A stretch of DNA of 64,000 bases from Clostridia bacterium (GTDB taxonomy: Bacteria > Bacillota > TC1 > UBA5767). Below, one piece after another: positions 9,720 through 27,030 of the stretch. Location: the NCBI GenBank assembly GCA_016887505.1, contig CP069393.1, forward strand, positions 434,001 to 498,000. The letters run 5' to 3'. How positions within the stretch are numbered: the stretch's first letter is position 1; the number at the start of each line of letters is the position of its first letter. The translations under genes were made by a program, and so were the position numbers. Below the pieces are notes generated by a model that made no database searches, was not told where the DNA came from, and was given only the letters and a program-made list of their open reading frames with translations.

Positions 9720-10406
9720 ATGTTTGTGTTTTACTTTATTTACGGAATTATCATTGGCTCATTTTTAAATGTTTGTATCTACCGTTTGCCTATAGGGCTG
9801 AATCTAGCATATCCAAGGTCCCATTGTCCACGCTGTCAGCATAGCTTAAATGGTTTAGATTTGGTTCCACTATTTAGTTATTTGTTTATTGGGGGAAAAT
9901 GCCGTTACTGTGGTGAAAGCATCTCAATCCGCTATTTTTTGGTTGAACTCTTTACTGGGATTGGATTTTTAGCAGTGGGCTTAACCCAGCCATTTCCATA
10001 TTCGATACTGTATTTGCTATGGATTAGTTTTTTCATTGTAGCAGTGCTAATTCAGTTTGATAACCATGTTCCATCTAAAACGCTAGGAGTAATCGGATTA
10101 ATCTTTTCTCTTAGCACCCTTTACCAACAGAGCTTTTCTCAATTGGGAATGGCTTTATTGGGTGGTGTCCTTGGATTCTTGATTTCACAAATATCTACAG
10201 AAAAAAGAGAACTGGGATATGTTTTTACGTTCATAGCAACTGGAATATTCTATGGATCCTTGAGGTTTTTAGGACTGTATCTTATTTCCCTCATAGCATT
10301 TGAAATGGCAAGGTTAGCTTTTAAGGACGAACAGGGATTAACCCGGGCTAGCCAGGTTAGATATTTGGTCTTTCTTTTTGGGGGGTTGATTCTTGCAGTT
10401 ATATAG
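9720..10406 (+). CDS. prepilin-peptidase-like protein with degenerate protease site (PilD N-methyltransferase half)
   Basis: A 228-residue membrane protein of the PilD/A24 type that opens the pilus locus. The N terminus has the conserved GSFLNVCIYRLP and the four-cysteine zinc module (CPRC near residue 37, CRYC near 61), which in bifunctional PilD belongs to the methyltransferase part. The first catalytic Asp region survives loosely as FDNHVPSK. The second motif, GxGD, is absent where expected (around KRELGYVFTFIATG). I infer loss of protease activity with retained zinc/methylation function. A complementary protein with intact GGGD and no zinc module is encoded at 26254, closing the locus. 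The ribosome site is AGAGGTGTATC before ATG. Confidence 0.8.
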   Translation: MFVFYFIYGIIIGSFLNVCIYRLPIGLNLAYPRSHCPRCQHSLNGLDLVPLFSYLFIGGKCRYCGESISIRYFLVELFTGIGFLAVGLTQPFPYSILYLLWISFFIVAVLIQFDNHVPSKTLGVIGLIFSLSTLYQQSFSQLGMALLGGVLGFLISQISTEKRELGYVFTFIATGIFYGSLRFLGLYLISLIAFEMARLAFKDEQGLTRASQVRYLVFLFGGLILAVI

Positions 10407-10959: not shown

Positions 10960-11337
10960 ATGAACAAGATTTTTTCAAAGTTAAGAAGTAAGAAGAAGGG
11001 CTTTACCCTAATTGAGTTGATTGTTGTTATCGTAATCATCGGTATCCTAGCAGCAGTTATGATTCCACAATTCAGTGGATTTACTGACAAAGCTAAAAGC
11101 ACCCAAGCATTAGTAGATGCTAAGCAAATTGCTACTGCCTATGATGCGCTAAAGCTTGAACAAGGCGATTATTCGGATGTATCAGAAACTGAAGTTGAGA
11201 CTATGTCTGGTGTTACCATTTCTTCTGGTACTAATTCTTTGTCTTTAGAAGATGATGGTGGATTCGAATATGAAATTGATGGCTTTACAGCTGGTAGAGA
11301 TAGCGCTACAGATGGTGTAGCCCTAATTGAAGAATAA
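10960..11337 (+). CDS. pilA: major type IV pilin (prepilin)
   Basis: A 125-residue type IV prepilin. The leader is short and basic (MNKIFSKLRSKKKG), cut before Phe in KKGFTLIEL with the conserved Glu at position +5. The hydrophobic helix follows (IVVIVIIGILAAVMIPQF), then KAKSTQALVDAKQIATAYDA and an acidic beta region. I placed the start at 10960, where GGGGAGGAATTATT gives a strong ribosome site; the longer open frame from 10852 adds an unrelated N terminus. Its own promoter and a following terminator suggest it is expressed above the rest of the operon, as expected for a fibre subunit. Confidence 0.94.
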   Translation: MNKIFSKLRSKKKGFTLIELIVVIVIIGILAAVMIPQFSGFTDKAKSTQALVDAKQIATAYDALKLEQGDYSDVSETEVETMSGVTISSGTNSLSLEDDGGFEYEIDGFTAGRDSATDGVALIEE

Positions 11338-11516: not shown

Positions 11517-13670
11517 ATGCTAATGAAATATGTTAACGGATTGGATCCCATACTAATAGCGCTTGCTCTGATTCCTGTTGTGGTGATGGGAATAGTATTT
11601 GCATATTTCTTCATTCGCTATGACGTAATGGCTTTAGGAGCAATGCGTAAGGTTTTTTTGAAATACAGCAATAAAGCGAGTGACTTGCCACAAAAGGGAA
11701 GAGCTTATGAAAAATTATTCGTAAATGAGAACAAGGACGTAGAACCAAAGAGTTTTGTTTTAGGACGTGAACGATTGTTGCATATGCTTAACAGTCACTT
11801 TGAAGAGGATCTTTTACCAGAGGTAGAAGTATTCTTTCCAGAACAGTTACTACTAAATATCGAAGGCAATAGGGACGCCTTTAGGCTACTTTACCTAGTT
11901 GCACCTATGTTCGGTGTATTGGGTATAGTACTTCCCATTTTATATAATTCCATAAACGGATTGAGTGATCTATCTGAACCACTAGCAATCGGCGGGGTCG
12001 GTTTCGTATTGTTGGTGCTATTGATGCTGGTATTTACAATGCTTGACCTGGGTGCCCTACGGTCATCGAGAAAGCTATACCAGCATTTTTTGCATGCCTG
12101 CAACGCAGTGCTGCCAGTCATGAGTCAAAATGCAGGACCTGCGTTACTCGTTGAAGCAACGAGAAAGAGCCAACGCAACTATGCGAGTGCGACAAGAGAC
12201 TTAAATCACAGTTTTGAAATAAATGTAAACCGAATGGTTCAGGCCATGGAAAGTTTCACCGAAGGTGGCGTTTTACCAGCCCTACGTGATGCCATGGAAG
12301 AAATGATCAAAGACACCTTGCTAGTGGGTATGCAAAAGACCCATGATGAGATGCAAGGAGCTTTAGAAAAGATTTCTGCTCGAGAAGAACGCGGCGTACA
12401 AGATATGATTGAACGATTCAGCAACTTGTTGAATGAACGAGTAGATAGCTCTATGAGGGCTTTGGCCGATGATATGACTAAAGTCACGACACAACTATCT
12501 GAACAACAAAGACAAGCAATTGCGCATCAAGAGCAGTTTGATGCTTTTCTTAAAAGCAGTATGGAACTAGCAAGAGAAAATATGGAAGCCATGCTTACAA
12601 AGCAAGCTTCTGAACAAATGGCACAGAATGACCTGATCAAACAAAATCTGAAGTTGGCTGCAACTGCACTTGAAGAACAACAACAACAGTTTCTTGCCTT
12701 TCAGAAAGAACAGGCAGAAGAGCTTTCGTCTAGTGTTCAAGAACAGAATACAGCCTTGCAGGGAAGGATTCAGTTGCTAGCCGATTTGCGGGATGAGGAA
12801 AACGAGAGACTGGAAAAAAGTCAGAAAATGGTGGAAGAAGCAGTTCGTATTGAAGAAATTACTTCAGGACAGCTTCATGAAATAGGCACGGCCTTGAGCT
12901 TATTGCAAGAAGGTATTACTAAGTTCTCTAGTGAATCAGAGCGCTCTCACCATAAAACGATGGAGAGTATTACGGAGTTTGCTCAAACCCAAACAAGTTT
13001 TGTTGAAAAACTTGTTAATAGTGAAGAAACCTTGCAAAACTCCTTGAATTTGGGACTAGAACGGTATACCCAAATGGACGAGCTCGTGATGAATATGATG
13101 AATGGCATTACAAAACGGATGAACGATGCTATGGCAGGAGCCGGTAAAGAAATTGCACGTGGCGTAATTGAAGTCACTGAAAGTAATGCTGAGGCAATTG
13201 CTAATCTGACGGAACAAGCACAACAACTAAGAGATGACTATAGTAATTACTTTGGCAAAATGGATGATCAAACTAGAAAAACGCTTGAAGATATGGATTA
13301 CCAAATACAGCTGATTATATCTAGAGTAAATGAAGAAATAGGCAGTATGCTTAAAGAAATGATGGAACAGAATCATGAGAATGCTGCAAACCATAATGAG
13401 GCAACCTTAAGCCTTATGGAGTCCTTTAAAGAACAAGCGGAAAGCATCAGCTTGTATGCCAAAGAGATTAATTTGGACGTAAATGACTTAAAGGATGGAT
13501 TAAAAGAATCTGTTAAGGTCTTCAAAGAGGATACCAACGAATCAGTGCATCAAACTTTGGAAACCTTTGACGCAGGCTTGGCTGAACTGACGGAGCGGTT
13601 GGCCTTAACGACAGAGAGCATTCGGGAAGCGGTTGAAAACTTGCCTAATGCTATTCGTCATGACAATTAG
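11517..13670 (+). CDS. MotA/TolQ/ZorA-like membrane protein with long coiled-coil tail
   Basis: A 717-residue protein in the pilus operon. Hydrophobic segments lie at about 12-34, 118-142 and 155-178, separated by an 80-residue cytosolic stretch that ends in VFFPEQLLLN. Residues about 205-715 are almost unbroken alpha-helical coiled coil rich in Glu, Gln, Met and Leu. A compact membrane part followed by a very long helical tail is the layout of ZorA, the stator-like subunit of Zorya, and more loosely of MotA/ExbB/TolQ. The second and third segments (VAPMFGVLGIV and LAIGGVGFVLL) are only weakly like the ExbB channel motif. I infer a stator-like or force-transmitting role; a structural scaffold is the alternative. 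The ribosome site is GAGGAG. The next gene starts 5 bases after the stop. Confidence 0.6.
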   Translation: MLMKYVNGLDPILIALALIPVVVMGIVFAYFFIRYDVMALGAMRKVFLKYSNKASDLPQKGRAYEKLFVNENKDVEPKSFVLGRERLLHMLNSHFEEDLLPEVEVFFPEQLLLNIEGNRDAFRLLYLVAPMFGVLGIVLPILYNSINGLSDLSEPLAIGGVGFVLLVLLMLVFTMLDLGALRSSRKLYQHFLHACNAVLPVMSQNAGPALLVEATRKSQRNYASATRDLNHSFEINVNRMVQAMESFTEGGVLPALRDAMEEMIKDTLLVGMQKTHDEMQGALEKISAREERGVQDMIERFSNLLNERVDSSMRALADDMTKVTTQLSEQQRQAIAHQEQFDAFLKSSMELARENMEAMLTKQASEQMAQNDLIKQNLKLAATALEEQQQQFLAFQKEQAEELSSSVQEQNTALQGRIQLLADLRDEENERLEKSQKMVEEAVRIEEITSGQLHEIGTALSLLQEGITKFSSESERSHHKTMESITEFAQTQTSFVEKLVNSEETLQNSLNLGLERYTQMDELVMNMMNGITKRMNDAMAGAGKEIARGVIEVTESNAEAIANLTEQAQQLRDDYSNYFGKMDDQTRKTLEDMDYQIQLIISRVNEEIGSMLKEMMEQNHENAANHNEATLSLMESFKEQAESISLYAKEINLDVNDLKDGLKESVKVFKEDTNESVHQTLETFDAGLAELTERLALTTESIREAVENLPNAIRHDN

Positions 13671-13675
13671 GTGAT

Positions 13676-14860
13676 ATGATGTACCGTTTATCGAAAGTCA
13701 TAGAGTCTGTCAAGGAATGGATGTATTTACCAGATGAGTTTCCATTCTTAGATAGAAAAAAAGAACAAGAAACACTCCGAGATACAATAAGAGCAACGAA
13801 AGGATCCAACCGCTCTACGCTAGCTAAAAATCTGAAGCATAGAGACTTGGAAGCACTTCTACTAATGCTGGTAGAACTTGAGGATTCTTTAGAGATTGAA
13901 CAAACTACCGAGATATTGGTAGAACGCATGTCGCCATGGTTGATGCGCTTGTTTACTTCACTCTTTGTAAACCATGAAGATGTTTCGGCTGTGTTGCATC
14001 TATTCCATCGTCTCCACGAAAAGGGCAATGAGCTTGGAGCTGACTATTCAGAGGGTTTGCTAGTTTGGAATTATGGTGGTAGCAATCAAATTGTAGCGGA
14101 TATTGTGCGTGATATCTATTCGAATGAATTGGGATTGAGTGAATTCTATAGGCTCTATTCTATACCTGAAAACAGTAGTTTTGCTTTACACATTGCGTTG
14201 GAATATTTAAAAATAGCAGATAAAGATATCCTATTTTCGCATGGACATTATTTAATCAAGCTAATAAAAACCCAGGAACCTGCGGTCCTAGAAAACTTGC
14301 TACTGAATTATTGGGAGAAATTTTCCATTGCTGATTCACTGACTGAAGTAAATTTGGTCATTTTTGAACAGTTGGGAGAACCATACATTTCTCCGGACTG
14401 GGGTGTATTCCCCAAGGAAATGAAGGATGCTTTTGTACAATGGCACTTTCTTTACCAAATCCGAGTAAAAACCAAAGATTATCCCCAAAAAACAAGGTGC
14501 TTTTCAAAGCTGTATCACCTTATTCGAACGAGTTACGATTGGCCAGGTTACGATAATTTATTCATCATTGATTTTGGAGATTTTGTACTGGTTGATTGCA
14601 CCGATAGAGAAAAAGCCTACTATTGTTCTAGTGAAAGAATTGAATATGAGCTTGCGAAATCCAAGAATGACGGAATTATGCCTGCAATTCTAAAACACAG
14701 CACAGGCTTTATCAGCGCTAGGGATTATATTATTGAAATGAAAGACGACGATTGCATTGAATTAAAGTTTACGGGGATGAGTGGACTCTATATTGAGGAG
14801 TTCATAGGCCTTAAAACGGGTCTTTATCCTGATACGAGAAAAATGGGAAGAACGCAATAG
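13676..14860 (+). CDS. ZorC/EH-signature-like protein of the pilus operon
   Basis: A 394-residue soluble, helix-rich protein with no membrane segment. It is not a standard pilus gene. The C-terminal part has the segment IIDFGDFVLVDCTD followed by KAYYC and, about 30 residues on, ILKHSTGFISARDYI. By eye this parallels the EH-signature end of ZorC (a GDy-x-x-V-E-F segment, an NAcY segment, then a conserved His), with Asp where ZorC has Glu. That likeness, and its position 5 bases after the ZorA-like gene, is the basis of the call. No sequence search was possible, so the homology is a hypothesis. The next gene is pilB. Confidence 0.45.
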   Translation: MMYRLSKVIESVKEWMYLPDEFPFLDRKKEQETLRDTIRATKGSNRSTLAKNLKHRDLEALLLMLVELEDSLEIEQTTEILVERMSPWLMRLFTSLFVNHEDVSAVLHLFHRLHEKGNELGADYSEGLLVWNYGGSNQIVADIVRDIYSNELGLSEFYRLYSIPENSSFALHIALEYLKIADKDILFSHGHYLIKLIKTQEPAVLENLLLNYWEKFSIADSLTEVNLVIFEQLGEPYISPDWGVFPKEMKDAFVQWHFLYQIRVKTKDYPQKTRCFSKLYHLIRTSYDWPGYDNLFIIDFGDFVLVDCTDREKAYYCSSERIEYELAKSKNDGIMPAILKHSTGFISARDYIIEMKDDDCIELKFTGMSGLYIEEFIGLKTGLYPDTRKMGRTQ

Positions 14861-14906
14861 ATAGTACCTTAGAAGGTATAATTTTTAACGAGAAATGGAG
14901 AGGCTT

Positions 14907-16589
14907 ATGAGGATAAACCATAAGAGACTTGGAGAAGTTCTGATGGATGCAGGAGCCATCACAGAAATACAACTGCAAGAGGGGTTGGAAAAATCCAAGG
15001 AAAGGGGCACCCTGCTAGGAGAAACACTAATTGATATAGGATATATTGACGAAAAGACCCTATATCAAGCTCTAGAATTCTTATTTCATGTTCCATATAT
15101 TGACTTAACAGAGACTCCAATCGATAAAAAAGCCAGTAGCTTGATACCTGAAAAATTGGCTAAAAAATATACCTTAATTCCCATTAAGGTAGAGGATAAT
15201 GTCCTTACCGTTGTCATGAATGATCCATTGAACTTCTATGCAGTGGACGATGTAAAAAGAGCAACTGGTTTGCGGGTTGAAGTAGGTATTTCACCGATAA
15301 AAGAAATCAACAATGCTATTGAACGCTACTATGGTAGCGAAAATGCACAAAAGGCGTTTGAAGATTTGAAGAAGGAATATGGCGATTTAGATTTGCTGGA
15401 TTTGAGTTCAATCTCTGCCAATGAAGTTGCCGAGGCACCTGTAGTACGTCTGATCAACTCGATTCTACAGCATGCAATCAACTCCAATGCGAGTGATATC
15501 CATATTGAGCCAACGGCCAAAGAGGTTCGCGTTCGCTTTAGAATTGATGGCAAGTTGCAAGATGTGATGAATTCCGCAATATCGGCCCATTCGGCAATTG
15601 TAACGAGAATAAAAATAATGGGTGAGATGGATATTGCAGAAAAACGCATACCACAAGATGGCCGGGTAGAAACTTCATTGGATGATCGGACAGTTGACCT
15701 TCGTATTTCTATCCTACCTACTATTTATGGCGAAAAGGTTGTTATCCGGATTTTGGGTGGTTCTGCTGGCGCCCTCGATAGAAAATTTCTTGGCTTATCT
15801 GAAGAAAATGAATTGCTATTTGATAAGATTACTAAAAGTCCGAATGGGATTGTATTGGTTTCAGGTCCGACTGGATCTGGTAAAACTACTACCTTGTATA
15901 CCTTACTCAAAGAACTAAATAAACCAGAAGTAAATGTAATCACAGTTGAAGACCCAGTCGAGTACAAATTGGATGGAATCAGTCAAGTACAGGTAAACAA
16001 TAAGGCAGGTCTCACGTTTGCTTCAGGACTACGTTCAATTCTTCGACAAGACCCGGATATCATTATGATTGGTGAGATTCGAGATGCAGAGACTGCGCAG
16101 ATTGCGATCAGGGCATCCATTACGGGCCACATTGTACTAAGCACAATACATACCAACGATGCAGCGTCATCAGTTATCCGTTTGATTGATATGGGTATTG
16201 AATCCTATTTGGTATCATCCTCGGTTGTAGGTGTTGTAGCCCAACGTTTGGTAAGAAAAATTTGTCCTAAGTGTAAGACAGCATATAGACCGAGTCACAG
16301 TGAAATGATGTTGCTAAAAATGAAGGAACCTACTTCCATATATAAAGGAGAAGGATGTCCTGCCTGCAATTTTACAGGCTATAAAGGACGTATTGGAATA
16401 CACGAAGTGCTGGTTTTAACGAAAGAAATTAGAGAACTAATCAATAGAGGTGCGTCTACAGACCAGCTCCAACAGATGGCCATAAGACAGGGTACCATTA
16501 CATTACGACAAAGCTGTGCAGAATTGGTACTGAAAGGTGTTACGACGGTTGAAGAAATGATTAAAGTAACCTATAGTGTTGAAGGCTAG
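14907..16589 (+). CDS. pilB: type IV pilus extension ATPase PilB
   Basis: A 560-residue hexameric ATPase that powers pilus assembly. The N-terminal MshEN/T2SSE-N domain (about 1-150) begins RLGEVLMDAGAIT. The catalytic core has Walker [11 protein letters not shown] near residue 320, the Asp box, and Walker B IIMIGEIRD near 382. A tetracysteine zinc site (CPKC near 452, CPAC near 484) is typical of PilB/GspE and absent from PilT. I prefer the ATG at 14907 because GGAGAGG precedes it at proper spacing; an in-frame ATG at 14895 overlaps that ribosome site. It is followed 30 bases on by pilT. Confidence 0.96.
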   Translation: MRINHKRLGEVLMDAGAITEIQLQEGLEKSKERGTLLGETLIDIGYIDEKTLYQALEFLFHVPYIDLTETPIDKKASSLIPEKLAKKYTLIPIKVEDNVLTVVMNDPLNFYAVDDVKRATGLRVEVGISPIKEINNAIERYYGSENAQKAFEDLKKEYGDLDLLDLSSISANEVAEAPVVRLINSILQHAINSNASDIHIEPTAKEVRVRFRIDGKLQDVMNSAISAHSAIVTRIKIMGEMDIAEKRIPQDGRVETSLDDRTVDLRISILPTIYGEKVVIRILGGSAGALDRKFLGLSEENELLFDKITKSPNGIVLVSGPTGSGKTTTLYTLLKELNKPEVNVITVEDPVEYKLDGISQVQVNNKAGLTFASGLRSILRQDPDIIMIGEIRDAETAQIAIRASITGHIVLSTIHTNDAASSVIRLIDMGIESYLVSSSVVGVVAQRLVRKICPKCKTAYRPSHSEMMLLKMKEPTSIYKGEGCPACNFTGYKGRIGIHEVLVLTKEIRELINRGASTDQLQQMAIRQGTITLRQSCAELVLKGVTTVEEMIKVTYSVEG

Positions 16590-16619
16590 TCTTATTCTTC
16601 TAGAAAGGAAGTGAGAAGA

Positions 16620-17687
16620 ATGTCCGATAATTTTGAAAATGCGCTCCGTTTTGCCGTGGCTGAGGATGCGTCAGATGTGCATTTGACGGTTGGAAAACCG
16701 CCCATACTAAGAATCCGTGGTGAATTGGTGCCATTCGGTGAAGAAATCCTGATGCAAGATGTAATTGAAGAAATTGCACTAAAAATGATGAATGACGAGC
16801 AAAAAGGGAAATTTAGTGAATTTGGTGAAGTTGACTTTTCTTGGTCCAGGCCAGGCTTGAATAGATACCGTGTAAATGTATACCGCCAACGTAGTAGTGT
16901 GGCTGTTGCACTTCGTATGATTCATTCGAATATTCCTCGCTTTGAAGATATTAATCTACCAGATATTCTCAAGACTCTAGCGCTTAAACCGAGGGGCTTG
17001 GTGCTGGTTACTGGACCGACTGGTTCAGGAAAATCTACAACACTTGCCGCGATGGTAGGGTATATTAACAGTCATAGAAAGTGTCATATTCTTACCATTG
17101 AAGAACCCATCGAGTACCTGCACAAGCATCAAAATTGCATGGTGAATCAACGGGAGGTAGGTGGAGATACCACTAGTTTTGCAAAAGCATTGAGGGCGGC
17201 TCTACGTGAAGACCCAGATGTTATCCTAGTGGGCGAAATGAGGGACTTAGAGACTATTTCCACAGCTGTTTCAGCAGCGGAAACAGGACACTTTGTTATG
17301 TCAACATTGCATACCACTACTGCAGCTCAAACAGTGGACAGGATTATTGATGCATTTCCTTCACATCAGCAACATCAGATAAGGAGCCAGCTGTCAACGA
17401 TTTTAGAAGGAATCGTCTGCCAACAATTGATTAAGACAGCAGATGGAAAGGGTATCGTACCGGCTATGGAAATCCTTTTGGTAACGGATGCGGTTAGAAA
17501 CTTAATTAGAGAAGGAAAAACGCAACAGCTAGAAACCGTACTGCAGACCAATATAAACAATGGAATGGTTCCGATGGATTATTCGTTAGCTCAATTGGTG
17601 AAAACCAGAACCATTAGCCTTGAAGATGCCATGGCAAGATGTGTTGATATTAAGGTATTCAAACGATACTGTAATATGGAAATATAG
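16620..17687 (+). CDS. pilT: type IV pilus retraction ATPase PilT
   Basis: A 355-residue retraction ATPase. It starts MSDNFENALRFAV and continues with the PilT-type N domain (DASDVHLTVGKPPILRIRGEL). Walker A GPTGSGKST is near residue 132, and Walker B VILVGEMRDLET near 200 with the PilT signature AETGHFVMSTLHTTTA just after. No zinc cysteines are present, which separates it from PilB. The ATG at 16620 fits AAAGGAAG 8 bases upstream; a GTG at 16611 in the same frame lies inside that site. A retraction motor next to PilB implies dynamic pili (twitching or DNA uptake). Confidence 0.96.
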   Translation: MSDNFENALRFAVAEDASDVHLTVGKPPILRIRGELVPFGEEILMQDVIEEIALKMMNDEQKGKFSEFGEVDFSWSRPGLNRYRVNVYRQRSSVAVALRMIHSNIPRFEDINLPDILKTLALKPRGLVLVTGPTGSGKSTTLAAMVGYINSHRKCHILTIEEPIEYLHKHQNCMVNQREVGGDTTSFAKALRAALREDPDVILVGEMRDLETISTAVSAAETGHFVMSTLHTTTAAQTVDRIIDAFPSHQQHQIRSQLSTILEGIVCQQLIKTADGKGIVPAMEILLVTDAVRNLIREGKTQQLETVLQTNINNGMVPMDYSLAQLVKTRTISLEDAMARCVDIKVFKRYCNMEI

Positions 17688-17712
17688 ATAATATGTGAAA
17701 GGAGTAGCATGT

Positions 17713-18921
17713 ATGAAAGAATATGTATGCAAGGTGAAGCGACCCAATGGAACAATCATACGAAAGTATAAGATTCGAGCAAATTCTAAGCAGGCATTAT
17801 TAGTGAAGCTGAAGCAGAATGATTTGTATTTGCTGGAGTACGAAGAAGTGGTAGCCAAGAAAGATATATTTGGCGGCAACAAGATTCGTCTATCTACGAA
17901 AGATATCGCCATGTTTTGTAGACAACTATCTTCTTTGTTGGCTTCTGGGGTTTCTCTTGTGAATGCGCTAAATATTCTGTATCTTCAGATTGATAAACGA
18001 AATATTAAGAAGAGCATTAAGTTGCTTTATGAGTCAGTACAACGAGGAGACCAATTTTCCGAAAGCATTAAGAAACAATCGGATGTTTACCCGGAAATCA
18101 TGGTACGCATGATTGAAGCTGGTGAAATGAGTGGTAATCTTGACGAGGTAATAACACGTCTGGCTGAGCAATTTGAAAAAGATGTTAAATTAAAAACCAA
18201 AATACAAACGGCAATGACCTACCCAATTATTTTGGTTCTACTTAGTATCTCAGTAATATTAATTCTGGTGACGCAGGTGTTTCCAATATTCTTGGGCTTA
18301 TATGATACTGCTACGGAGGCCCTCCCCTTTCCCACCCAGGTAATGATAGGATTTTCAGATTTTATTCAAAATTATTGGTACGTCATGATTATTGGTGTAA
18401 TCCTAGTAGTCCTTGCGGCCAAAACATTTATTGGAACAGAATACGGTAAACGGAAGTGGCATACACTTTTGTTTAAGTTGCCGGCTGTTGGGAAAACGCT
18501 TACCAAAATTGCAGCTGTTCGATTTTCAAGAACGCTCTCAACCCTGCTTTCTAGTGGAACTACACTGATTCAATCGTTAGATGTAGTTATTAATGTAGTT
18601 GGCAATAGGGTAATTATGGATGACCTTTTGGTTACCAAGGAAGATATTCGAAAAGGTATGATGCTTTCTCAATCGCTTCGGAAGGTGACATATTTACCAC
18701 CGATGATTTATTCAATGGTAGGTATTGGCGAAGAATCAGGTACGATGGAGCATATGTTACTTAAATGCGCAGAATACTATGATGATGAGGTTGATGCTTC
18801 AATTCAAAAACTAGTAACAATGATTGAACCGCTACTGATCATTGTTATGGGTGGAATAGTTGGATTTATTGTAATTTCAATGATTTTACCCATCTTTAAT
18901 ATTTATCAATCTATTGGTTAG
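17713..18921 (+). CDS. pilC: type IV pilus inner-membrane platform protein PilC
   Basis: A 402-residue polytopic platform protein on which PilB and PilT act. It has two T2SSF repeats (about 60-185 and 265-390). Membrane helices are visible near 170-195 (TYPIILVLLSISVILILV), 215-235 and 370-395 (LLIIVMGGIVGFIVISM). The first repeat holds the family segment FCRQLSSLLASGVSL and the second the matching FSRTLSTLLSSGTTL. The ATG at 17713 has AAGGAG 8 bases before it; a GTG 18 bases earlier is in frame but would place the start upstream of that site. Confidence 0.95.
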   Translation: MKEYVCKVKRPNGTIIRKYKIRANSKQALLVKLKQNDLYLLEYEEVVAKKDIFGGNKIRLSTKDIAMFCRQLSSLLASGVSLVNALNILYLQIDKRNIKKSIKLLYESVQRGDQFSESIKKQSDVYPEIMVRMIEAGEMSGNLDEVITRLAEQFEKDVKLKTKIQTAMTYPIILVLLSISVILILVTQVFPIFLGLYDTATEALPFPTQVMIGFSDFIQNYWYVMIIGVILVVLAAKTFIGTEYGKRKWHTLLFKLPAVGKTLTKIAAVRFSRTLSTLLSSGTTLIQSLDVVINVVGNRVIMDDLLVTKEDIRKGMMLSQSLRKVTYLPPMIYSMVGIGEESGTMEHMLLKCAEYYDDEVDASIQKLVTMIEPLLIIVMGGIVGFIVISMILPIFNIYQSIG

Positions 18922-18944
18922 AATTCTAAAGGAGGAACTAAAGG

Positions 18945-19973
18945 ATGAAGCAGAGACTATCCATCGATATAGGCAGTAAAAACCTACATATAGTCCTTGG
19001 TCAATACGCTAAGAATAAGTTAATTGTAAATCAAGCAAATAGTTTTCCTATCCCAGAAGAAGCGGAAAAAGTGGGAAAAGATGTAGCTCCAGAGGTACTA
19101 GAAGAAATTATTGCGGATGCTATGAGGCTGATGAATGTTAAGACAAAGCAATGCATTGTAACGATTAATTCAGAAAATGCAGCAATTAAGGATATTGAAC
19201 TACCCGTTTCAAAAGCCAAAGAAGTTAAACAAATGATTGAAAACGAAATGGTTCAAACGTATCAAACTGCAGGAGATGATATTATTCAGTATCGAAATAC
19301 TGGAAAAATCGAAAAGGAAAACGGTAACACAATGCAACGCTACCGCGTAGCGGCGTTGGATAAATTGACCGTTGAACGCTACTATGAGTTACTGCTTAAA
19401 CTTAAGTTTAAAAAAACCTTTCTTGATTTAAATATTAACGCGATTGATAAACTATTAAATGGTGCTAGTAGAGTCAATGATCATGATATAAGTGAAGAAT
19501 CCGTCCTGCTTTTAGACTATGGCCATAATACAACAACGGCATACGTAAAAGTAAAAGGAGAACCAGTTTTCTTCCGGACTTTGCAGATTGGTTCTGGCGA
19601 AATTGAACAGATTTTGGAACTGGAAACCTTAAAATCTAGATCTGAAATAAGGCAACTGAAAGAAAGAGGTAAATCTTTCTTCTCAGATGATACGGGTATG
19701 GTTAAACTGTTTGATTTGCTTAAACCTTATTTTTATCATTTTCAAGATGAGCTGTCGAAGATATTGAGCTTTTATAGCACCCATGAAAGAATTGGCCATG
19801 TTGATAGAGTATTTTTAATGGGCAAGGGAGCTGAATTAGCAGGATTACCTGAGTATCTTACTGAAAATTTGGGCTTTCCCGTTGAACTGTTCAACAGTGT
19901 GCGTTTCGGTACCGAAGAACTGATTATATCTCCGGCGCATGTTAACGCTGTTGCAGCGTTAATTCGAGCGTAG
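18945..19973 (+). CDS. pilM: pilus assembly actin-like protein PilM
   Basis: A 342-residue cytosolic actin-fold protein that links PilN/PilO to the motor. The first phosphate loop is SIDIGSKNLHIV near residue 5, and a second nucleotide loop, LLLDYGHNTTTAYV, is near 188. The end has the MGKGAELAGLPEYL loop. It lies directly upstream of pilN and pilO, the conserved order. The ribosome site is AAAGGAGGAACTAAAGG. Divergence from PilM of Pseudomonas is large, as usual in Firmicutes. Confidence 0.9.
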   Translation: MKQRLSIDIGSKNLHIVLGQYAKNKLIVNQANSFPIPEEAEKVGKDVAPEVLEEIIADAMRLMNVKTKQCIVTINSENAAIKDIELPVSKAKEVKQMIENEMVQTYQTAGDDIIQYRNTGKIEKENGNTMQRYRVAALDKLTVERYYELLLKLKFKKTFLDLNINAIDKLLNGASRVNDHDISEESVLLLDYGHNTTTAYVKVKGEPVFFRTLQIGSGEIEQILELETLKSRSEIRQLKERGKSFFSDDTGMVKLFDLLKPYFYHFQDELSKILSFYSTHERIGHVDRVFLMGKGAELAGLPEYLTENLGFPVELFNSVRFGTEELIISPAHVNAVAALIRA

Positions 19974-19988
19974 AGAGGATGATGAAAT

Positions 19989-20546
19989 ATGAGAGATTAT
20001 AACTTTTTTGATGGCTATAACAAAAAGAAGGGCTTTCGATTCAATTTCTCTTCGCCGATATTTATTTTTGCTATCGTATTAATTGCCCTAGGCGCATTTT
20101 CTTTTCAGCTGATAACCAAAAATAATGATATGCAGGATAAAATTCAAGCTCAAAACTTAGAGCTGATTGCATTACAAGAACATGAAGCCTATGCAGAATC
20201 AAAAAATTTAGAACAGGTTGTTGCTGTTTTAAAAGAGTATGATCAAAAAGCAGAGAATGTTCTAAATCAATTGACAGCTGCAAATATTATCGATGTTGAT
20301 TTTATGAGTCAAATTGAAGCAGCATTACCTGCAACTTCAAAAACGACAAATTTGAATGTAAATCAAGAAGTTTTTTCCATTATCTGCGAGGTTCCAACCC
20401 GGGAAATTGCTGCAACGCTTTATGATAGCTTACTTGGAACTGGATTATTTGAACGTTTGCAAATTGCTTCCGTTGTGAGTAAACAAGAAGCCAATACATA
20501 TACAGTTAACATAAACGGAAACCTGAAAGCAGGTGAAATTCAATGA
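19989..20546 (+). CDS. pilN: PilN-like alignment protein
   Basis: A 185-residue bitopic protein. A short cytosolic N terminus begins MRDYNFFDGYN, matching the PilM-binding position of PilN. One membrane helix (about 20-38) and a coiled coil (45-90) are followed by a small alpha/beta domain. Identity rests on place (pilM-here-pilO) and topology more than on sequence. Its last codons overlap the next start in ATGA, which means translational coupling with pilO. Confidence 0.8.
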   Translation: MRDYNFFDGYNKKKGFRFNFSSPIFIFAIVLIALGAFSFQLITKNNDMQDKIQAQNLELIALQEHEAYAESKNLEQVVAVLKEYDQKAENVLNQLTAANIIDVDFMSQIEAALPATSKTTNLNVNQEVFSIICEVPTREIAATLYDSLLGTGLFERLQIASVVSKQEANTYTVNINGNLKAGEIQ

Positions 20547-21310
20547 ACAAAAAGAATACTAAAAACAATTGGATGGTAACCAATAAACGAGAAAGATACT
20601 TGCTTATAATTATGAGTATTGCTCTTTTGGCATACGCCTGTTTCCGATTTGTAATTTCCCCTCAAATGTTGAAAGCTGAAAGTTTACAAGCTGAATTAGG
20701 GGAATTGGAAATTCAGATTGCACAAGCTCAAAGCGTAATCGATCGAAGTGAAGAACTACAGGAAGAAGAAAAAGAACTTCGTCAAAGCCTAGCAGACAAG
20801 TACACGGTATTTTTCAAAGAGTTAGACCAAGCTGGAATATTACGCTTGGTTGATGAAAAGATAGCACAATCTAATGCAACCGTTGTGTCTTATATGCCAC
20901 AAGAGGAAATTCTAACTACGGTTTCTGACAGCCAAGCTGAGCAGATGCCATTAACTTATCCATTGAGTGAAATTGCCGACAATTACAAGGAAATTATGGA
21001 TGAAGCAGAAATTTCGGAAGAAGAAATTTCTGACGCAGAGATGGCTGAAAATGAACTAATACCGTCGGTTGTGGTATTATTAAGCTATAATCAGACTACA
21101 TACCCACAGCTTAAAGCCTTATTACAATCCATCAAGGACCTTAATAAAGCCGTGGTTGTGCAAGAAATGGCGATTAGTGGAAGTGAAGGAACGATTGTTG
21201 GAAGTGCAAAACTAGCTTTTTATAAAATTCCAGCACTGGAAGATTTTGAAGAAACATACTTTAAAGAGGCGTCACCCGTAGCCTTCGGTAAACCCAATCC
21301 ATTCGAATAA
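20543..21310 (+). CDS. pilO: PilO-like alignment protein
   Basis: A 255-residue bitopic protein, partner of PilN. One membrane helix (about 20-37), a coiled coil (45-90) and a C-terminal ferredoxin-like domain are separated by an acidic insert rich in Glu (around residues 150-175). It overlaps pilN by 4 bases. No PilP gene follows, as expected when no PilQ secretin is needed. Sequence similarity to PilO is weak, so the call depends on context. Confidence 0.78.
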   Translation: MNKKNTKNNWMVTNKRERYLLIIMSIALLAYACFRFVISPQMLKAESLQAELGELEIQIAQAQSVIDRSEELQEEEKELRQSLADKYTVFFKELDQAGILRLVDEKIAQSNATVVSYMPQEEILTTVSDSQAEQMPLTYPLSEIADNYKEIMDEAEISEEEISDAEMAENELIPSVVVLLSYNQTTYPQLKALLQSIKDLNKAVVVQEMAISGSEGTIVGSAKLAFYKIPALEDFEETYFKEASPVAFGKPNPFE

Positions 21311-21779: not shown

Positions 21780-23147
21780 ATGACAAGACATCGTTATCAA
21801 AAAGGTTTTACAATTGTTGAATTGATGGTAACAATCGTGATTGCTAGTATAGCTATGTCGATTGCATCTTCCTTCCTAAATTTCTCATGGATTAGTCAAA
21901 AGAGAACGGTAGATGAGTATGAAATCCAGTCAGATATCCGTTTGGCTGCAGACACCGTGAATTATGCTATACGAGATGCCTCTGTTACATTTGCTATTAC
22001 GGAAGACGTTTTTAATGAATCAAAAAAGGAAAAGTGGAATTATATCGGCATTGAAGATAATAAGGAAATAGTAGAGTATATTTGGGACCCAGTCAATAAT
22101 ACTCATGACAGAGTTGTATTGCTTCCCGAAAAAGAAAAGATATTTTATAATCTTTATTTTTCGCAAAGTGTTCCTAATACCAAACTGATATCATACCATT
22201 TAGAAGGATACTTTGAAGGAAGCGAATCGGAAAAGGCAATCATCGAATCAGAGCTAGCGGCGGTGAATTCTGTAGCCGTTGAAGATGGTGGTAGCCTCTC
22301 AAACCCTGCGATAGCCTTAGCCTATAGGACCGATCCTAAACCTCAACCAGAAATTGTAACGACTCAAAAAGAAGTTACTATAGTAGTTGCACTCGTTTTA
22401 GATAATTCCGGCAGTATGCGTTTCGATATGGACGGGCATGACCAATGGAACTGGCGGTATGATTCTAGCGAGGTGAGAAATTCGATTCTTGAATCAAAAG
22501 CGAAAGACCTTATTGATCAGTTTGCTGATATTGGTAATGTGAAGGTGAGTATAATACCTTTTGCTAATAATGCCAACGATGTCAGTCCGATGATGGATGC
22601 TACAACACAGAAAGTAGCCTTGAAGAATCTAGTTGACAATTTGTATGGATATGGAGGTACAAATACCGGAGATGGACTACGAAGAGGAGCACATATTATT
22701 AAGGACTATTCAGATGATCATTCAGAGGAAGAAATAGTTAATTATTTGATCCTTTTGACAGATGGGGAACCAACTTTTTATAGCAGTAATTCATACTATA
22801 ATTATTCGCCTCAAGTAGATGATAATAATATACACTACTTATGGGGCTCAGGGTATTCAGATAGTAGTAATATTAGTAATGCAATGAATTATGTAGACTA
22901 TGTTGGACAAAATGTAGTTGTGGGTATGGATGTTGATATCTCTACTTTTGTGATTGGATTTACAGCAGTCGCTGATGAAATAACTAGAGCAGAAGATATT
23001 GCCACAGACTCATGCACCCATGATACAAATACAGCTAGAGCCGGAACATATTACAGGGCAGATAGTGCGGTAGAGTTGGAACGTGTTTTTGGCGAAATAA
23101 CCAACACGATTCTACAAGAAACATGGCATATTTATGGACCATATTAA
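21780..23147 (+). CDS. minor pilin fused to a von Willebrand factor A domain
   Basis: A 455-residue modular prepilin. Class III-type leader and helix: KGFTIVELMVTIVIAS with Glu at +5, so it is processed like the major pilin. Residues about 200-445 form a vWA domain with a complete MIDAS: DNSGSM near 207, Thr in GGTNTGDGLRRG near 300, and TDGEP near 327. Between 25 and 195 lies a pilin-type body. vWA-bearing pilins such as PilB of Streptococcus sanguinis bind host proteins at the pilus tip. By analogy this is a tip adhesin with metal-dependent binding, but its ligand is unknown. The ribosome site is AGAGGTGTTGTAA. Confidence 0.9.
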   Translation: MTRHRYQKGFTIVELMVTIVIASIAMSIASSFLNFSWISQKRTVDEYEIQSDIRLAADTVNYAIRDASVTFAITEDVFNESKKEKWNYIGIEDNKEIVEYIWDPVNNTHDRVVLLPEKEKIFYNLYFSQSVPNTKLISYHLEGYFEGSESEKAIIESELAAVNSVAVEDGGSLSNPAIALAYRTDPKPQPEIVTTQKEVTIVVALVLDNSGSMRFDMDGHDQWNWRYDSSEVRNSILESKAKDLIDQFADIGNVKVSIIPFANNANDVSPMMDATTQKVALKNLVDNLYGYGGTNTGDGLRRGAHIIKDYSDDHSEEEIVNYLILLTDGEPTFYSSNSYYNYSPQVDDNNIHYLWGSGYSDSSNISNAMNYVDYVGQNVVVGMDVDISTFVIGFTAVADEITRAEDIATDSCTHDTNTARAGTYYRADSAVELERVFGEITNTILQETWHIYGPY

Positions 23148-23165: not shown

Positions 23166-26100
23166 ATGTTGAAAAAGAAAGGCATGACCCTAGTAGAAAC
23201 GATTGTGGCAATTACCATAGCAGGCATTTTAGCTATTGGAGTAATACCTGCCTTTGGGAGTATCCTACAGATGACATTACGAACGATGGATGTCACTGTG
23301 GGCGCTTTTGATGCGCAAGCTCATATGGAAAGTAATATCTTTGATTTAAAAAATGCCATGCTAGATCCAGCAATCGATGAATTATCCCTCGATGGGGTAT
23401 CAATAGTTGAGTATCAGAATATTTTCGGTAGGTCAGTTGATATGTATCAGCTGGATATGGTTTATCCAGAAAATGAAGCAAAATTTATGAACGTTTCTTT
23501 GTCCAAAAAATTGACAGAGATGCAAGTCCATCAGCTTTTGGTTGCTTCAAATGTACATGTGGAAATTTTAAATAAAACAACCCATGAAGTTGCCGATATG
23601 AAAGATGATCCTAAGCCCCAATTAATTGGCTTGGTTGATGCCAATACAGATCCCAACTGGTATGCCGATTTATACCATTGGTATGCTTCTATGGAAGGAA
23701 ATCCTGAACCAGTATTTCCGGATGACTATGAAGAAATCTATTTTGGTGGCATTTCACCCAGTAATTTGACAGATTTGACTAACTTAGTAAACCGCTACAT
23801 TATGTTTACCGTAGTTCCTGTTGATATACACGGCATTCGTGGAAATGAAGTCAATAGTACAAATGTTATATACGTACTCGGCGAAGAGTGGAAATCAGGA
23901 CTGTTTGCTTGGGTGGATAAGGATAACAATACCAACTATGTCAACACAGATGATGTTAAGGTAGAAAAGAGCTTGATGTGGCCACTGAATCACGGCTTTG
24001 ATTCACTAGTACCCTTCCAAGATCCATCGCAACCAGATCAGACTCTTGATCCGAGTGGTGGTTCCCTATATGTTCCTATGCGCATCGACGTTGCACCTGG
24101 TGATTTGATTGGTCCAATTGATGTAAATGGAACGCAGAAATTAGAATGGTATGTGGATAAGAATGTAAATCTAGCGACTGATATTGAAGTGACGAATTCT
24201 AGCGATATCGATATTACTACTCGTGATGGCGATATTACCCTATACCAATATATCAAAATTGACCCAAGTTCAGGAGATGCTGTAATTGAAGATGGTAGAA
24301 CTAAATTAATTGAAGATGGGCCATCCTTAACTACGAGCGGGGATATTAACTTTGAAACAGAAGGCAGAGGAACAGTTATATTCCAAGAATATTCAAATCT
24401 TGAAGCAGACTCAATATCAGTAATAGCGAATGGCGATATTATCTTATATGGAACAAGCATGGTGGCAGCCGATGATTTGATTTTAGATACGACGAAAGGT
24501 TTGTCATTCCCTGGTGTTCGGAGAATTCTAATTCATGATTCAAATCTTGAGTTTGTAGCAAATGGTCAGTACGGAAAAACTATGCAGCTAATTTCAAAAG
24601 ACGAGATTAGTATTGAAGATACCTCGTTTGAGGGGGATACTACTAAAATTGGTACAGTGACACTTTCGGCACCAGATGAGATTATACTAGACAATGTTGA
24701 CTTTGAGTATGTCGATATTCTAGTCAAAGATCCGGCCGAAATGATAGAAGGCGGTTGGACTGCTGGGTCAACACTTACTGTCGAAGATGGAGAGAGTATA
24801 ACCTTTACAAAAGGTGTTCGCAAAGTAAGCAATCAAGGAAATCTTGTAGTTGGAAATACCGGAAAAATCAAGTTTAGCAATGATATGGATACAGATTTGG
24901 ACAATCCATTACGTCTTGACCTGGTGAAAGGGTCAAACGATGATGAAATCATTATATCTTCGAACTATGGAAGAAACCTAGATTATGCTAGTGCTAGCAG
25001 TGCTTCTACCTTTACCGGAGAAAATGTATACCAAAATGTAGGCTCCAGCAGATATAATATGGAGATGGCGGTAGATTGGAAGAGTGGAACCGGTAATCCA
25101 GTACAGGTTTCAGCTGCCTATGATGGAGAAAACACAATTACCGTTTCTGCGGCCTATTCTTCAATCGAGCCAATATCTGAATTTTACGAACTGAGTGTTC
25201 GTGACAAATATTCAGATAACGAGATTGTAGGAAAGATTAATTTTAGGGTTACTGGGGGAGCAGGCGCGTCTACTGAGGTAGAGATTCTTGGCTCATCCGT
25301 GGAAACCTTTACAGTAACATTCGATAAAAATGGTGGAGATGACAATCCAGTTCCTGGACAAATGTTGGTTCTTGATGGAAGTTCCTTGGGTTCACTACCT
25401 ACTTCACCAAACAAAGTAGACTATATCTTCAATGGATGGAATACGAAAAGGGATGGTAGCGGAAGTGAATTTGATGAGAATACAGTAGTGGAATCCTCAA
25501 TCACTGTATATGCTCAGTATGAATTAATACCCCTTATTTCTTATATAGTAACTTTTGATAAAAATGGTGGAGACAATTATCCTGATCCTATTAATATCGA
25601 AGTATACGAGGGGCTTAAAATTGGTACATTACCGAATCCTCCAACTAGAGCAGCTCATATCTTTACTGGATGGAATACGCGTCCTTATGGTAATGGAGAT
25701 GAAGTTACTTCTAACACCATAGTTACTGAGAGCTTTACATGTTATGCTCAATGGAAAGGCCAGTTAAGTTTTAACGACTTATCCATAGGGGATTATGTTG
25801 AGATTGAAGGATACAATTACCAAAAGGTTTCTGATAGCAAAGTACTAAAACGAACAATGTGGGGGAGTAATCAAGATTGGTGGGATGCAGATACAGTTGC
25901 CTACAATTATTACTACACTATCTCCACACCAGCAGTAATTGATACTGGTTTACTGAGTCGAGATGAGGTACTTGATTTGGATACCTATGCAATTCTAGCG
26001 AATGAGGGAGCATGGTGGACTAGCTCGGCAAAAAATAAGAATCAGGCATATAGGGTACGCAATAACGGAGGAATAACCCAATCTCAAAAATCTACTAATT

Positions 26101-26204
26101 CGGGTGTTAGACCTTATTTGGAACTAGATGTCGATTGGTATACCTTGACAGTCTTGTCAGGCTCTGGCTCTGATAGTGATCCATACATCTTAGACTTGCC
26201 ATGA
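23166..26204 (+). CDS. very large modular prepilin with InlB-type repeats
   Basis: A 1012-residue prepilin-like protein, about eight times the length of the major pilin. The N terminus (KKKGMTLVETIVAITIAGIL) has the processing motif with Glu at +5. A long beta-rich stretch (about 330-600) shows repeated short units such as DITTRDGDITLY and DIILYGTS, like filamentous surface proteins. Residues about 715-865 carry two repeats of the InlB/Listeria-Bacteroides type (each starts TVTFDKNGGD or IVTFDKNGGD and contains GWNTK or GWNTR). The C terminus contains GAWWTSSAKNK and SGVRPYLELD, a pattern seen in secreted DUF6273-like domains. It is probably the tip adhesin or surface-binding tip of the pilus. 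It is followed by a terminator. Confidence 0.85.
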   Translation: MLKKKGMTLVETIVAITIAGILAIGVIPAFGSILQMTLRTMDVTVGAFDAQAHMESNIFDLKNAMLDPAIDELSLDGVSIVEYQNIFGRSVDMYQLDMVYPENEAKFMNVSLSKKLTEMQVHQLLVASNVHVEILNKTTHEVADMKDDPKPQLIGLVDANTDPNWYADLYHWYASMEGNPEPVFPDDYEEIYFGGISPSNLTDLTNLVNRYIMFTVVPVDIHGIRGNEVNSTNVIYVLGEEWKSGLFAWVDKDNNTNYVNTDDVKVEKSLMWPLNHGFDSLVPFQDPSQPDQTLDPSGGSLYVPMRIDVAPGDLIGPIDVNGTQKLEWYVDKNVNLATDIEVTNSSDIDITTRDGDITLYQYIKIDPSSGDAVIEDGRTKLIEDGPSLTTSGDINFETEGRGTVIFQEYSNLEADSISVIANGDIILYGTSMVAADDLILDTTKGLSFPGVRRILIHDSNLEFVANGQYGKTMQLISKDEISIEDTSFEGDTTKIGTVTLSAPDEIILDNVDFEYVDILVKDPAEMIEGGWTAGSTLTVEDGESITFTKGVRKVSNQGNLVVGNTGKIKFSNDMDTDLDNPLRLDLVKGSNDDEIIISSNYGRNLDYASASSASTFTGENVYQNVGSSRYNMEMAVDWKSGTGNPVQVSAAYDGENTITVSAAYSSIEPISEFYELSVRDKYSDNEIVGKINFRVTGGAGASTEVEILGSSVETFTVTFDKNGGDDNPVPGQMLVLDGSSLGSLPTSPNKVDYIFNGWNTKRDGSGSEFDENTVVESSITVYAQYELIPLISYIVTFDKNGGDNYPDPINIEVYEGLKIGTLPNPPTRAAHIFTGWNTRPYGNGDEVTSNTIVTESFTCYAQWKGQLSFNDLSIGDYVEIEGYNYQKVSDSKVLKRTMWGSNQDWWDADTVAYNYYYTISTPAVIDTGLLSRDEVLDLDTYAILANEGAWWTSSAKNKNQAYRVRNNGGITQSQKSTNSGVRPYLELDVDWYTLTVLSGSGSDSDPYILDLP

Positions 26205-26253: not shown

Positions 26254-27030
26254 ATGAATATAATTCATAATGAATATAACACTAGAAGGGAATGCAGAGA
26301 TATGATATTTTCAGTCATTGGAAGTTTTGTTTTAACATTTGTAATGGTTCAAGCAGCGTACCTGTTTTTGAATAACATGGTATTACTTGAACAGCAGGAT
26401 GAATCATCTTTAGATGACATAGAGTGGGAATATTCGTGGAAAAAGTTTTTTAATCGATTGGGCACGACCCTGTTTAAAAATGATTCATGGCTATTTAAGG
26501 ATTTTAATCGATTGGATCGAATCGTGTTTTATGGTATGGGCTGTATTCTATGTTTGGCGATTTTTGTTAATATTACAGATGGTTCTGCTTGGCTTCACAT
26601 CATGATGGTGCAAATACTCTTGTTTATGAGTGTAATAGATGCCAAAACGCAAGAAATACCGGATGCAATCCATATGGGTTTGTTGCCACTAGTTATGGTA
26701 TATCTTTTACTGTATTCACAAATAGGATGGAAGTTTACGGCAGTGGGTGGGATACTTGCTTTTGTCTTCTTCTTTGTCCTATTTTTATTCGGTGCAATGG
26801 GTGGTGGCGATGTCAAGCTTATTGGAATATGTGGTTTGTATTTGGGCTTTCCTAAAATTTTAATGGGCATATTGGCTGGTATGATGTTTGGCTCAATTGT
26901 TGGCTTAACCTTAATTGCTCTTAAGAAAAAAACGAGAAAAGACCGAATTGCATTTGGACCATATATTGCTCTTGGTATAGTCGTAACACAGGTCTATTTT
27001 TGGGATATAATTTTTTTCTTATATTACTAG
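26254..27030 (+). CDS. prepilin peptidase (A24 aspartic protease) lacking the zinc/methylase module
   Basis: A 258-residue polytopic A24 protease. Both catalytic motifs are present: the first Asp in DAKTQEIPDA (near residue 130) and the second in GAMGGGDVKLIG (near 183). The four-cysteine zinc module of full PilD is absent; instead there is an extra N-terminal helix and a soluble 60-residue stretch. It is the active cleaving enzyme complementing the degenerate paralogue at 9720. Two starts are possible: 26254 (GAAGGA, close spacing) and 26302 (MIFSVIGS). It closes the pilus locus, after a terminator that may lower its level. Confidence 0.88.
   Translation: MNIIHNEYNTRRECRDMIFSVIGSFVLTFVMVQAAYLFLNNMVLLEQQDESSLDDIEWEYSWKKFFNRLGTTLFKNDSWLFKDFNRLDRIVFYGMGCILCLAIFVNITDGSAWLHIMMVQILLFMSVIDAKTQEIPDAIHMGLLPLVMVYLLLYSQIGWKFTAVGGILAFVFFFVLFLFGAMGGGDVKLIGICGLYLGFPKILMGILAGMMFGSIVGLTLIALKKKTRKDRIAFGPYIALGIVVTQVYFWDIIFFLYY

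What the first reader, a model, noticed from the sequence alone, without database searches (positions are those of the whole stretch)
11517..14860. Stator-like (ZorA/MotA) protein with long tail plus ZorC-like partner built into a type IV pilus operon
Two genes sit between the major pilin and pilB and belong to no standard pilus set. The first has a short membrane part and a 500-residue coiled-coil tail, the shape of ZorA. The second ends in a segment (GDFVLVD, KAYYC, then ILKHSTGF) that by eye follows the EH-signature end of ZorC. ZorB, the MotB-like peptidoglycan anchor, is absent, and no Zorya nuclease or helicase is near. This could be an ion-driven or force-coupling module for pili, or a domesticated phage-defence pair. 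Homology is inferred by eye only.
Basis: partly seen in the sequence, partly recalled or inferred. Interest (0 to 1): 0.8.

Follow-up and report, generated by a model that had tools for sequence, protein, structure and literature searches.

The report
Zorya-derived ZorA–ZorC pair in pilus operon
Two genes that resemble half of a bacterial antivirus machine (Zorya) turn out to be a conserved, inherited part of one family of type IV pilus machines, with the ion-motor parts and the DNA-cutting parts missing, which suggests that the pilus reuses the membrane-base-and-long-arm architecture for another job.

Summary
Window 11517-13670 (717 aa) and 13676-14860 (394 aa) lie between the major pilin and pilB. 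Both are homologous to Zorya ZorA and ZorC. HMMs built only from five genuine ZorABCD loci find them (E 7.6e-14 and 4.6e-11). Profile-profile matches give E 3.8e-23 and 6.8e-24, with reversed and shuffled controls at background for ZorC and the ZorA membrane part. A template-free model of the ZorA N-terminus retrieves solved ZorA first, then TolQ/ExbB.

The pair is not Zorya. No ZorB or MotB was found genome-wide, and no ZorD in the window. The Ser/Thr ring that carries ions is gone, the Glu/His of the EH signature is not kept, and the ZorC-like proteins are acidic where real ZorCs are neutral to basic.

The same pair sits beside pilB/pilT in seven other Bacillota loci, and next to pilT on a short contig in an eighth. 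In a 399-genome sample the five genomes with ZorC-like matches are exactly the five with the most window-like PilB (at least 63% identity). PilB, ZorA-like and ZorC-like trees agree on the two main clades, and the pair evolves at PilN/PilO rates.

Best reading: a non-conducting ZorA–ZorC module captured as a component of one T4P subclass, probably a scaffold. The mechanism is inferred.

The parts
11517..13670 (+). ZorA-like membrane protein with long helical tail, 717 aa
   Evidence: ORF; genuine-ZorA HMM E 7.6e-14; hhalign E 3.8e-23; Foldseek 8qyh/8qyd
11550..11606 (+). predicted TM1 (residues 12-30)
   Evidence: hydropathy; helix 11-56 in the model
11832..11873 (+). FF.E..L..I...R motif before TM2 (residues 106-119), shared with ZorA (FFSEQQLVDIP in 8qyd)
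   Evidence: alignments
11886..11942 (+). predicted TM2 (residues 124-142); lacks the GTFxGL ion-pathway motif of true ZorA
11988..12044 (+). predicted TM3 (residues 158-176); lacks the conserved Ser/Thr of true ZorA
12135..13667 (+). cytoplasmic helical tail (residues about 207-717), length varies in the family (whole proteins 717-1059 aa)
13437..13667 (+). tail tip (residues 641-717), the best conserved part of the protein, related to the genuine ZorA tail tip
   Evidence: mean pairwise identity 0.52-0.62 against 0.16-0.44 elsewhere; hhalign to ZorA tips E 3.3e-10, reversed 0.019
13676..14860 (+). ZorC-like soluble helical-repeat protein, 394 aa
   Evidence: ORF; genuine-ZorC HMM E 4.6e-11; hhalign E 6.8e-24; AF2 pLDDT 78.6
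14555..14668 (+). remnant of the EH-signature segment (NLFIIDFGDFVLVD..KAYYC..); the Glu is Asp or Asn in this family and the His is absent
14717..14737 (+). ARDxIIE motif specific to the pilus ZorC-like family
   Evidence: mostly invariant columns in alignment A3
9720..10406 (+). prepilin peptidase (PilD)
10960..11337 (+). major pilin (likely true start at 10960, MNKIFSKLRSKKKGFTLIE)
14895..16589 (+). PilB extension ATPase, marker of the T4P subclass that carries the pair
16611..17687 (+). PilT retraction ATPase
17695..21310 (+). PilC, PilM, PilN, PilO (rest of the T4P platform)

Best explanation
SHOWN: the two genes are homologues of Zorya ZorA and ZorC and form a two-gene module co-inherited with one subclass of Bacillota type IV pilus machines. 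The module lacks ZorB, the ion-binding ring and any nuclease. INFERRED: the ZorA-like protein builds an ExbB/ZorA-type oligomeric base in the membrane that does not conduct ions. Its long helical tail reaches into the cytoplasm, and the conserved tail tip docks the acidic helical-repeat ZorC-like protein, which in turn binds or positions the pilus ATPases (PilB/PilT) or the PilM-N-O platform. It would work as a tether, scaffold or gate that sets where or when pili are assembled, not as a motor or a DNA-targeting weapon.
For: Homology of both proteins, with controls. Pair beside pilB/pilT in G112/UBA5755, Parasporobacterium paucivorans, UBA5774, three species of one genus, and UBA2264; beside pilT at a contig end in Desulfosporosinus UBA5188. 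In 399 phylum genomes the five with ZorC-like matches are exactly the five with PilB at least 63% identical to the window's; the next best PilB is 57%. In six pair-less T4P operons examined (L085, L087-L091) and one contig-end fragment (L086), no ORF matches either family. PilB, ZorA-like and ZorC-like trees agree on the two main clades. dN/dS 0.15-0.17, as for PilN/PilO (0.11-0.16). Ser/Thr ring and GTFxGL lost, ZorC-like pI 5.0-5.6 against 7.05-9.4 for genuine ZorC. No ZorB in five pair-bearing genomes. Tail tip most conserved.
Against: No direct evidence of a contact between the pair and any pilus protein; scaffold or gate is inferred from architecture, linkage and losses. Oligomeric state was not modelled. 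The N-terminal model is of moderate confidence (pLDDT 69). The ZorC-like model did not retrieve ZorC (8r68) among its listed structural matches. An ion path using other residues or another partner is not excluded. The T4P subclass is rare and the sampled lineages are not independent.
Confidence: 0.55

Rival explanations
1. Ion-driven force module: the ZorA-like pentamer rotates or pulls using an ion gradient and couples force to the pilus, as MotA/ExbB/ZorA do.
For: Fold and membrane topology are ExbB/ZorA-like. PilN and PilO are short bitopic proteins with MotB-like topology that could stand in for ZorB (sequences; the analogy is mine).
Against: The TM2 Thr, the GTFxGL motif and the TM3 Ser/Thr of ZorA are absent in all nine family members. 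No MotB plug or ZorB in the genome. The PilN/PilO TM segments of four loci show no Asp. PilB/PilT already supply ATP-driven force.
Confidence: 0.1
2. Phage-defence pair that uses the pilus, or pilus-targeting phages, as the trigger; a reduced Zorya.
For: Both proteins descend from, or share ancestry with, Zorya parts; Zorya recruits ZorC/ZorD through ZorAB (PMC11890865, PMC12904381).
Against: No nuclease or helicase of the ZorD family in the pilus loci examined and no ZorB. ZorC-like proteins are acidic. Not scattered like a defence gene: tied to one PilB clade, with constraint equal to PilN/PilO.
Confidence: 0.15
3. A hitchhiking relic of a Zorya system that landed in a pilus locus and is decaying.
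For: Decayed copies exist: only a ZorC-like fragment with a stop in G186 and a short fragment in G423.
Against: Nine intact loci in several lineages, dN/dS about 0.15, trees that agree with PilB, linkage kept although gene order and strand changed.
Confidence: 0.05
4. Unrelated coiled-coil pilus scaffold; the ZorA match is compositional and the ZorC match is by eye only.
For: Single-sequence searches are weak: no Pfam family, no EH_Signature hit, and coiled-coil proteins also score. The full-length reversed ZorA control gives some signal (E 1.9e-4, 40 columns).
Against: The match holds for the membrane part alone (E 9.3e-17; controls E 0.18-0.5) and for the ZorC-like protein (E 6.8e-24; controls 0.26-0.74). 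HMMs from genuine Zorya loci find both. A template-free model retrieves ZorA first.
Confidence: 0.03

Closest known systems
Zorya type I (ZorA, ZorB, ZorC, ZorD; PDB 8QYD, 8VVN, 8R68)
   Same: ZorA-type membrane base with long helical tail and conserved tail tip; adjacent ZorC-type partner; same gene order A then C.
   Different: No ZorB, no ZorD, no ion-binding ring, EH-signature Glu/His not kept, acidic ZorC-like protein, fixed in a type IV pilus operon and not in a defence locus.
ExbB / TolQ / MotA stator family
   Same: Predicted three-TM ExbB-like topology; Foldseek hits after ZorA.
   Different: Long tail; no ExbD/TolR/MotB partner; PF01618 not detected in this genome.
Type IV pilus platform proteins PilM/PilN/PilO and known regulators
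   Same: Same operon, same evolutionary rate and inheritance pattern.
   Different: No sequence relation; the pair is absent from the standard Bacillota T4P operons examined.

Membership tests
Zorya type I defence system | ZorA homologue with MotA/ExbB-type membrane core and long cytoplasmic tail | tested here: met
Zorya type I defence system | ZorB (MotB-like, peptidoglycan-binding, Asp in TM) | tested here: not met
   MotB plug absent in the genome; ZorB profile finds none in five pair-bearing genomes while the control G047 hits at 3e-113; the Parasporobacterium hit is flagellar MotB next to MotA and FliM
Zorya type I defence system | ZorC homologue with EH signature | tested here: inconclusive
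   homologous by profile-profile and HMM but no Pfam EH_Signature hit, unlike genuine ZorC; Glu/His not kept
Zorya type I defence system | ZorD helicase/nuclease | tested here: not met
   no ZorD match in the window or in eight pilus loci; positive control found
Zorya type I defence system | conserved Ser/Thr ring for ion flow in ZorA | tested here: not met
   joint alignment; role of the ring from PMC11890865
Zorya type I defence system | anti-phage activity | not testable with these tools
   needs plating assays
MotA/TolQ/ExbB (PF01618) | match to PF01618 above cut-off | tested here: not met
   no match in the genome; no PF01618 among hits
MotA/TolQ/ExbB (PF01618) | ExbB-like fold of the membrane part | tested here: met
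   Foldseek: ZorA at E 3.7e-4, then TolQ and ExbB chains, most at prob 0.9 or more but only E 0.05-0.3; moderate-confidence model
MotA/TolQ/ExbB (PF01618) | pentamer around a B-subunit dimer | not tested
Type IV pilus component | genetic linkage and co-inheritance with T4P genes | tested here: met
Type IV pilus component | required for pilus assembly or function | not testable with these tools
   needs deletion mutants

The most novel reading that the evidence does not exclude
The ZorA-like oligomer encloses the transmembrane helices of the PilN-PilO pair where ZorB would sit, making a 5:2 stator-like but non-conducting (or force-sensing) complex that links pilus tension to its cytoplasmic tail and the ZorC-like adaptor: a mechanosensor or clutch for type IV pili built from antiviral parts, or the pilus form from which Zorya arose.
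Probability: 0.1. Interest if true: 0.92.

Novelty: new variant of a known kind. Interest (0 to 1): 0.72.

Why it matters
It shows that the ZorA-ZorC half of an antiviral machine exists as a stable, inherited part of a pilus machine without the ion motor or the nuclease. That isolates the ZorA-tail/ZorC link as a module of its own, suggests that ZorC docks on the ZorA tail tip, and gives a naturally ion-dead ZorA for comparison. It also adds a previously unlisted component to a T4P subclass, and raises the question of which came first, the pilus module or the defence system.

Tried and rejected
Single-sequence searches in Pfam, the PDB and plasmids gave nothing usable for the second gene. The first genome-contig scan with one protein found no relative; the 4-member alignment found five. 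Searching the nearest relatives found nothing, because those genomes lack this pilus subclass. Foldseek of the ZorC-like model gave only weak helical-repeat matches in PDB and none worth using in viral proteins. The Nature 2025 Zorya paper is not in the library, so the ion-ring argument rests on the Nat Commun paper and on the alignment with genuine ZorAs. Literature searches for a Zorya-pilus link found none. The coiled-coil-artefact idea was tested with reversed and column-shuffled profiles and rejected. The weak ZorB match in Parasporobacterium proved to be flagellar MotB. The ILKHSTGF resemblance to ZorC was rejected. Organism name of the window was not established.

Full report
WHAT IS THERE. 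The window is part of a 2.56-Mb single-contig genome, by its relatives and gene content a Bacillota bacterium. Its pilus operon runs pilD (9720-10406), pilin (likely start 10960), the two genes in question, then pilB, pilT, pilC, pilM, pilN, pilO and minor pilins. The two genes are 5 nt apart and 34 nt before pilB, so co-transcription with pilB is likely. A promoter-like scan of the region found no more sites than shuffles give.

HOMOLOGY OF THE FIRST GENE. NCBIfam and PADLOC single-sequence hits to ZorA are weak and fall in the coiled-coil tail, so by themselves they could be compositional. Four family members aligned give a PDB hit to ZorA 8qyd at E 4.1e-12, and to the 280-residue ZorA chain 8qyh at 2.6e-4, which covers the membrane part. 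Genuine Zorya loci with ZorA, ZorB, ZorC and ZorD in order were found in other Bacillota (L074-L078). Profile-profile comparison with those ZorAs gives 99.5%, E 3.8e-23; for residues 1-310 alone E 9.3e-17. Reversed and column-shuffled controls give E 0.18-0.5 for the N-terminal part. The reversed full-length control does show some coiled-coil signal (E 1.9e-4 over 40 columns), so the tail alone should not be trusted, but the N-terminal result stands. A template-free AF2 model of residues 1-310 (pLDDT 69) retrieves 8qyh and 8qyd first, then TolQ and ExbB chains.

HOMOLOGY OF THE SECOND GENE. Pfam, NCBIfam, PADLOC and the PDB give nothing for this sequence. The family profile compared with genuine ZorC gives 99.6%, E 6.8e-24 over 327 columns; controls E 0.26-0.74. 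An HMM of five genuine ZorCs finds the window protein at 4.6e-11 among 199 ORFs and the other pilus copies at 2.2e-15 or better; the same test for ZorA gives 7.6e-14 for the window. One pilus copy hits PADLOC ZorC1 at 2.2e-6. None of the pilus copies tested hits Pfam EH_Signature, while three genuine ZorCs do at 1e-11 to 4e-14. The Glu of the signature is Asp or Asn here and the His has no counterpart. The AF2 model (pLDDT 78.6) is a helical repeat with a small beta segment; Foldseek found only generic repeat proteins.

IT IS NOT ZORYA. ZorB: none in G000, G112, G210, G257 or G422; positive control 3.4e-113. The Parasporobacterium match is flagellar MotB beside MotA and FliM. MotB plug and MotA_ExbB families are not found in the window's genome. 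ZorD: none in the window or eight pilus loci. Ion path: in the genuine ZorAs aligned here, TM2 carries GTFxGL and TM3 carries Ser/Thr; Ser/Thr of ZorA form the polar ring around the ZorB Asp (PMC11890865). Neither feature is present in any of nine pilus copies. Charge: pilus ZorC-like pI 4.98-5.62; genuine ZorC 7.05-9.40, which speaks against DNA binding (inference).

LINKAGE TO PILI. The pair was found at G112/UBA5755, three species of one genus (G210, G257, G422; genome sizes suggest Dehalobacter, a guess), Parasporobacterium paucivorans, UBA5774, UBA2264 and Desulfosporosinus UBA5188. All lie beside pilB/pilT; in UBA5188 the contig ends inside pilT. UBA2264 and UBA5188 are the same loci as G481 and G463. 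Gene order and strand differ between lineages, yet the linkage is kept. In 399 sampled phylum genomes, 100 have a PilB at E <= 1e-160. The five with PilB at least 63% identical to the window's (G000, G112, G257, G186, G210) are exactly the five with a ZorC-like match (G186 is a decayed fragment); the next PilB is 57%. These five are three lineages, so they are not five independent events. Six pair-less pilus operons (G015, G181, G255, G341, G047, G127) and a contig-end fragment (G304) contain no ORF that matches either family. G047 and G127 carry a genuine Zorya elsewhere and a standard T4P without the pair. The same-genus genome G001 has a T4P with PilB only 46% identical and no pair, so the window's cluster probably arrived as a unit (inference).

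RATES. PilB, ZorA-like and ZorC-like trees agree on the two main clades, (three-species genus + UBA2264/UBA5188) and (window + UBA5755/Parasporobacterium). Window-to-UBA2264 identity: ZorA-like 26%, ZorC-like 24%, PilM 28%, PilN 25%, PilO 21%, PilB 62%. dN/dS within the three-species genus is 0.15-0.17 for the pair, 0.11-0.16 for PilN/PilO, and 0.02-0.06 for PilB/PilT. The pair therefore behaves like a platform protein under purifying selection.

MECHANISM. The tail tip (residues 641-717) is the best conserved part (52-62% mean pairwise identity; mid tail 16-25%), and tail length varies from lineage to lineage. The tip is related to the genuine ZorA tip (E 3.3e-10; reversed 0.019). The simplest reading is a membrane base, a spacer of variable length and a docking tip, with the ZorC-like protein as docked adaptor. 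Which pilus protein it touches is unknown. In Zorya, ZorAB is proposed to recruit ZorC and ZorD (PMC11890865, PMC12904381); retention of A and C alone argues that the A-C contact is the conserved core (inference).

NOVELTY. Searches of the held library found no description of a Zorya-like pair in pilus operons; the library lacks most subscription journals. The 2011 survey of Gram-positive T4P (PMC3244431) contains none of the terms MotA, ExbB or coiled. I file it as a new variant: known protein families in a new, ion-dead, ZorB-less combination, in a new cellular setting.

Noticed in passing
L037:3280-3984, L038:14643-15320, L049:19263-20006, L080:6553-7290: A sigma-factor-like gene (about 225-247 aa) sits in several pair-bearing pilus loci; not found in the window's pilus region.
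   Followed up: partly
window 21780-23147: A prepilin-like protein with a von Willebrand A-like domain (DNSGSM) in the pilus operon, possibly a tip adhesin.
   Followed up: no
window 23166-26204: A 1012-aa protein with a prepilin-like N-terminus and InlB-type B repeats by eye, also in the pilus operon.
   Followed up: no
window 26254-27030: A second prepilin-peptidase-like gene at the far end of the pilus operon.
   Followed up: partly
L074, L075, L076, L077, L078: Genuine type I-like Zorya loci (ZorA, ZorB, ZorC, ZorD) in Bacillota, with short ZorA (527-660 aa) and ZorC of about 395 aa.
   Followed up: partly
L040:9344-9694 (G186) and L096:2814-3098 (G423): Decayed remnants of the ZorC-like gene: next to intact pilB/pilT in G186, and roughly 15 kb or more from a standard pilB/pilT operon in G423.
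   Followed up: partly
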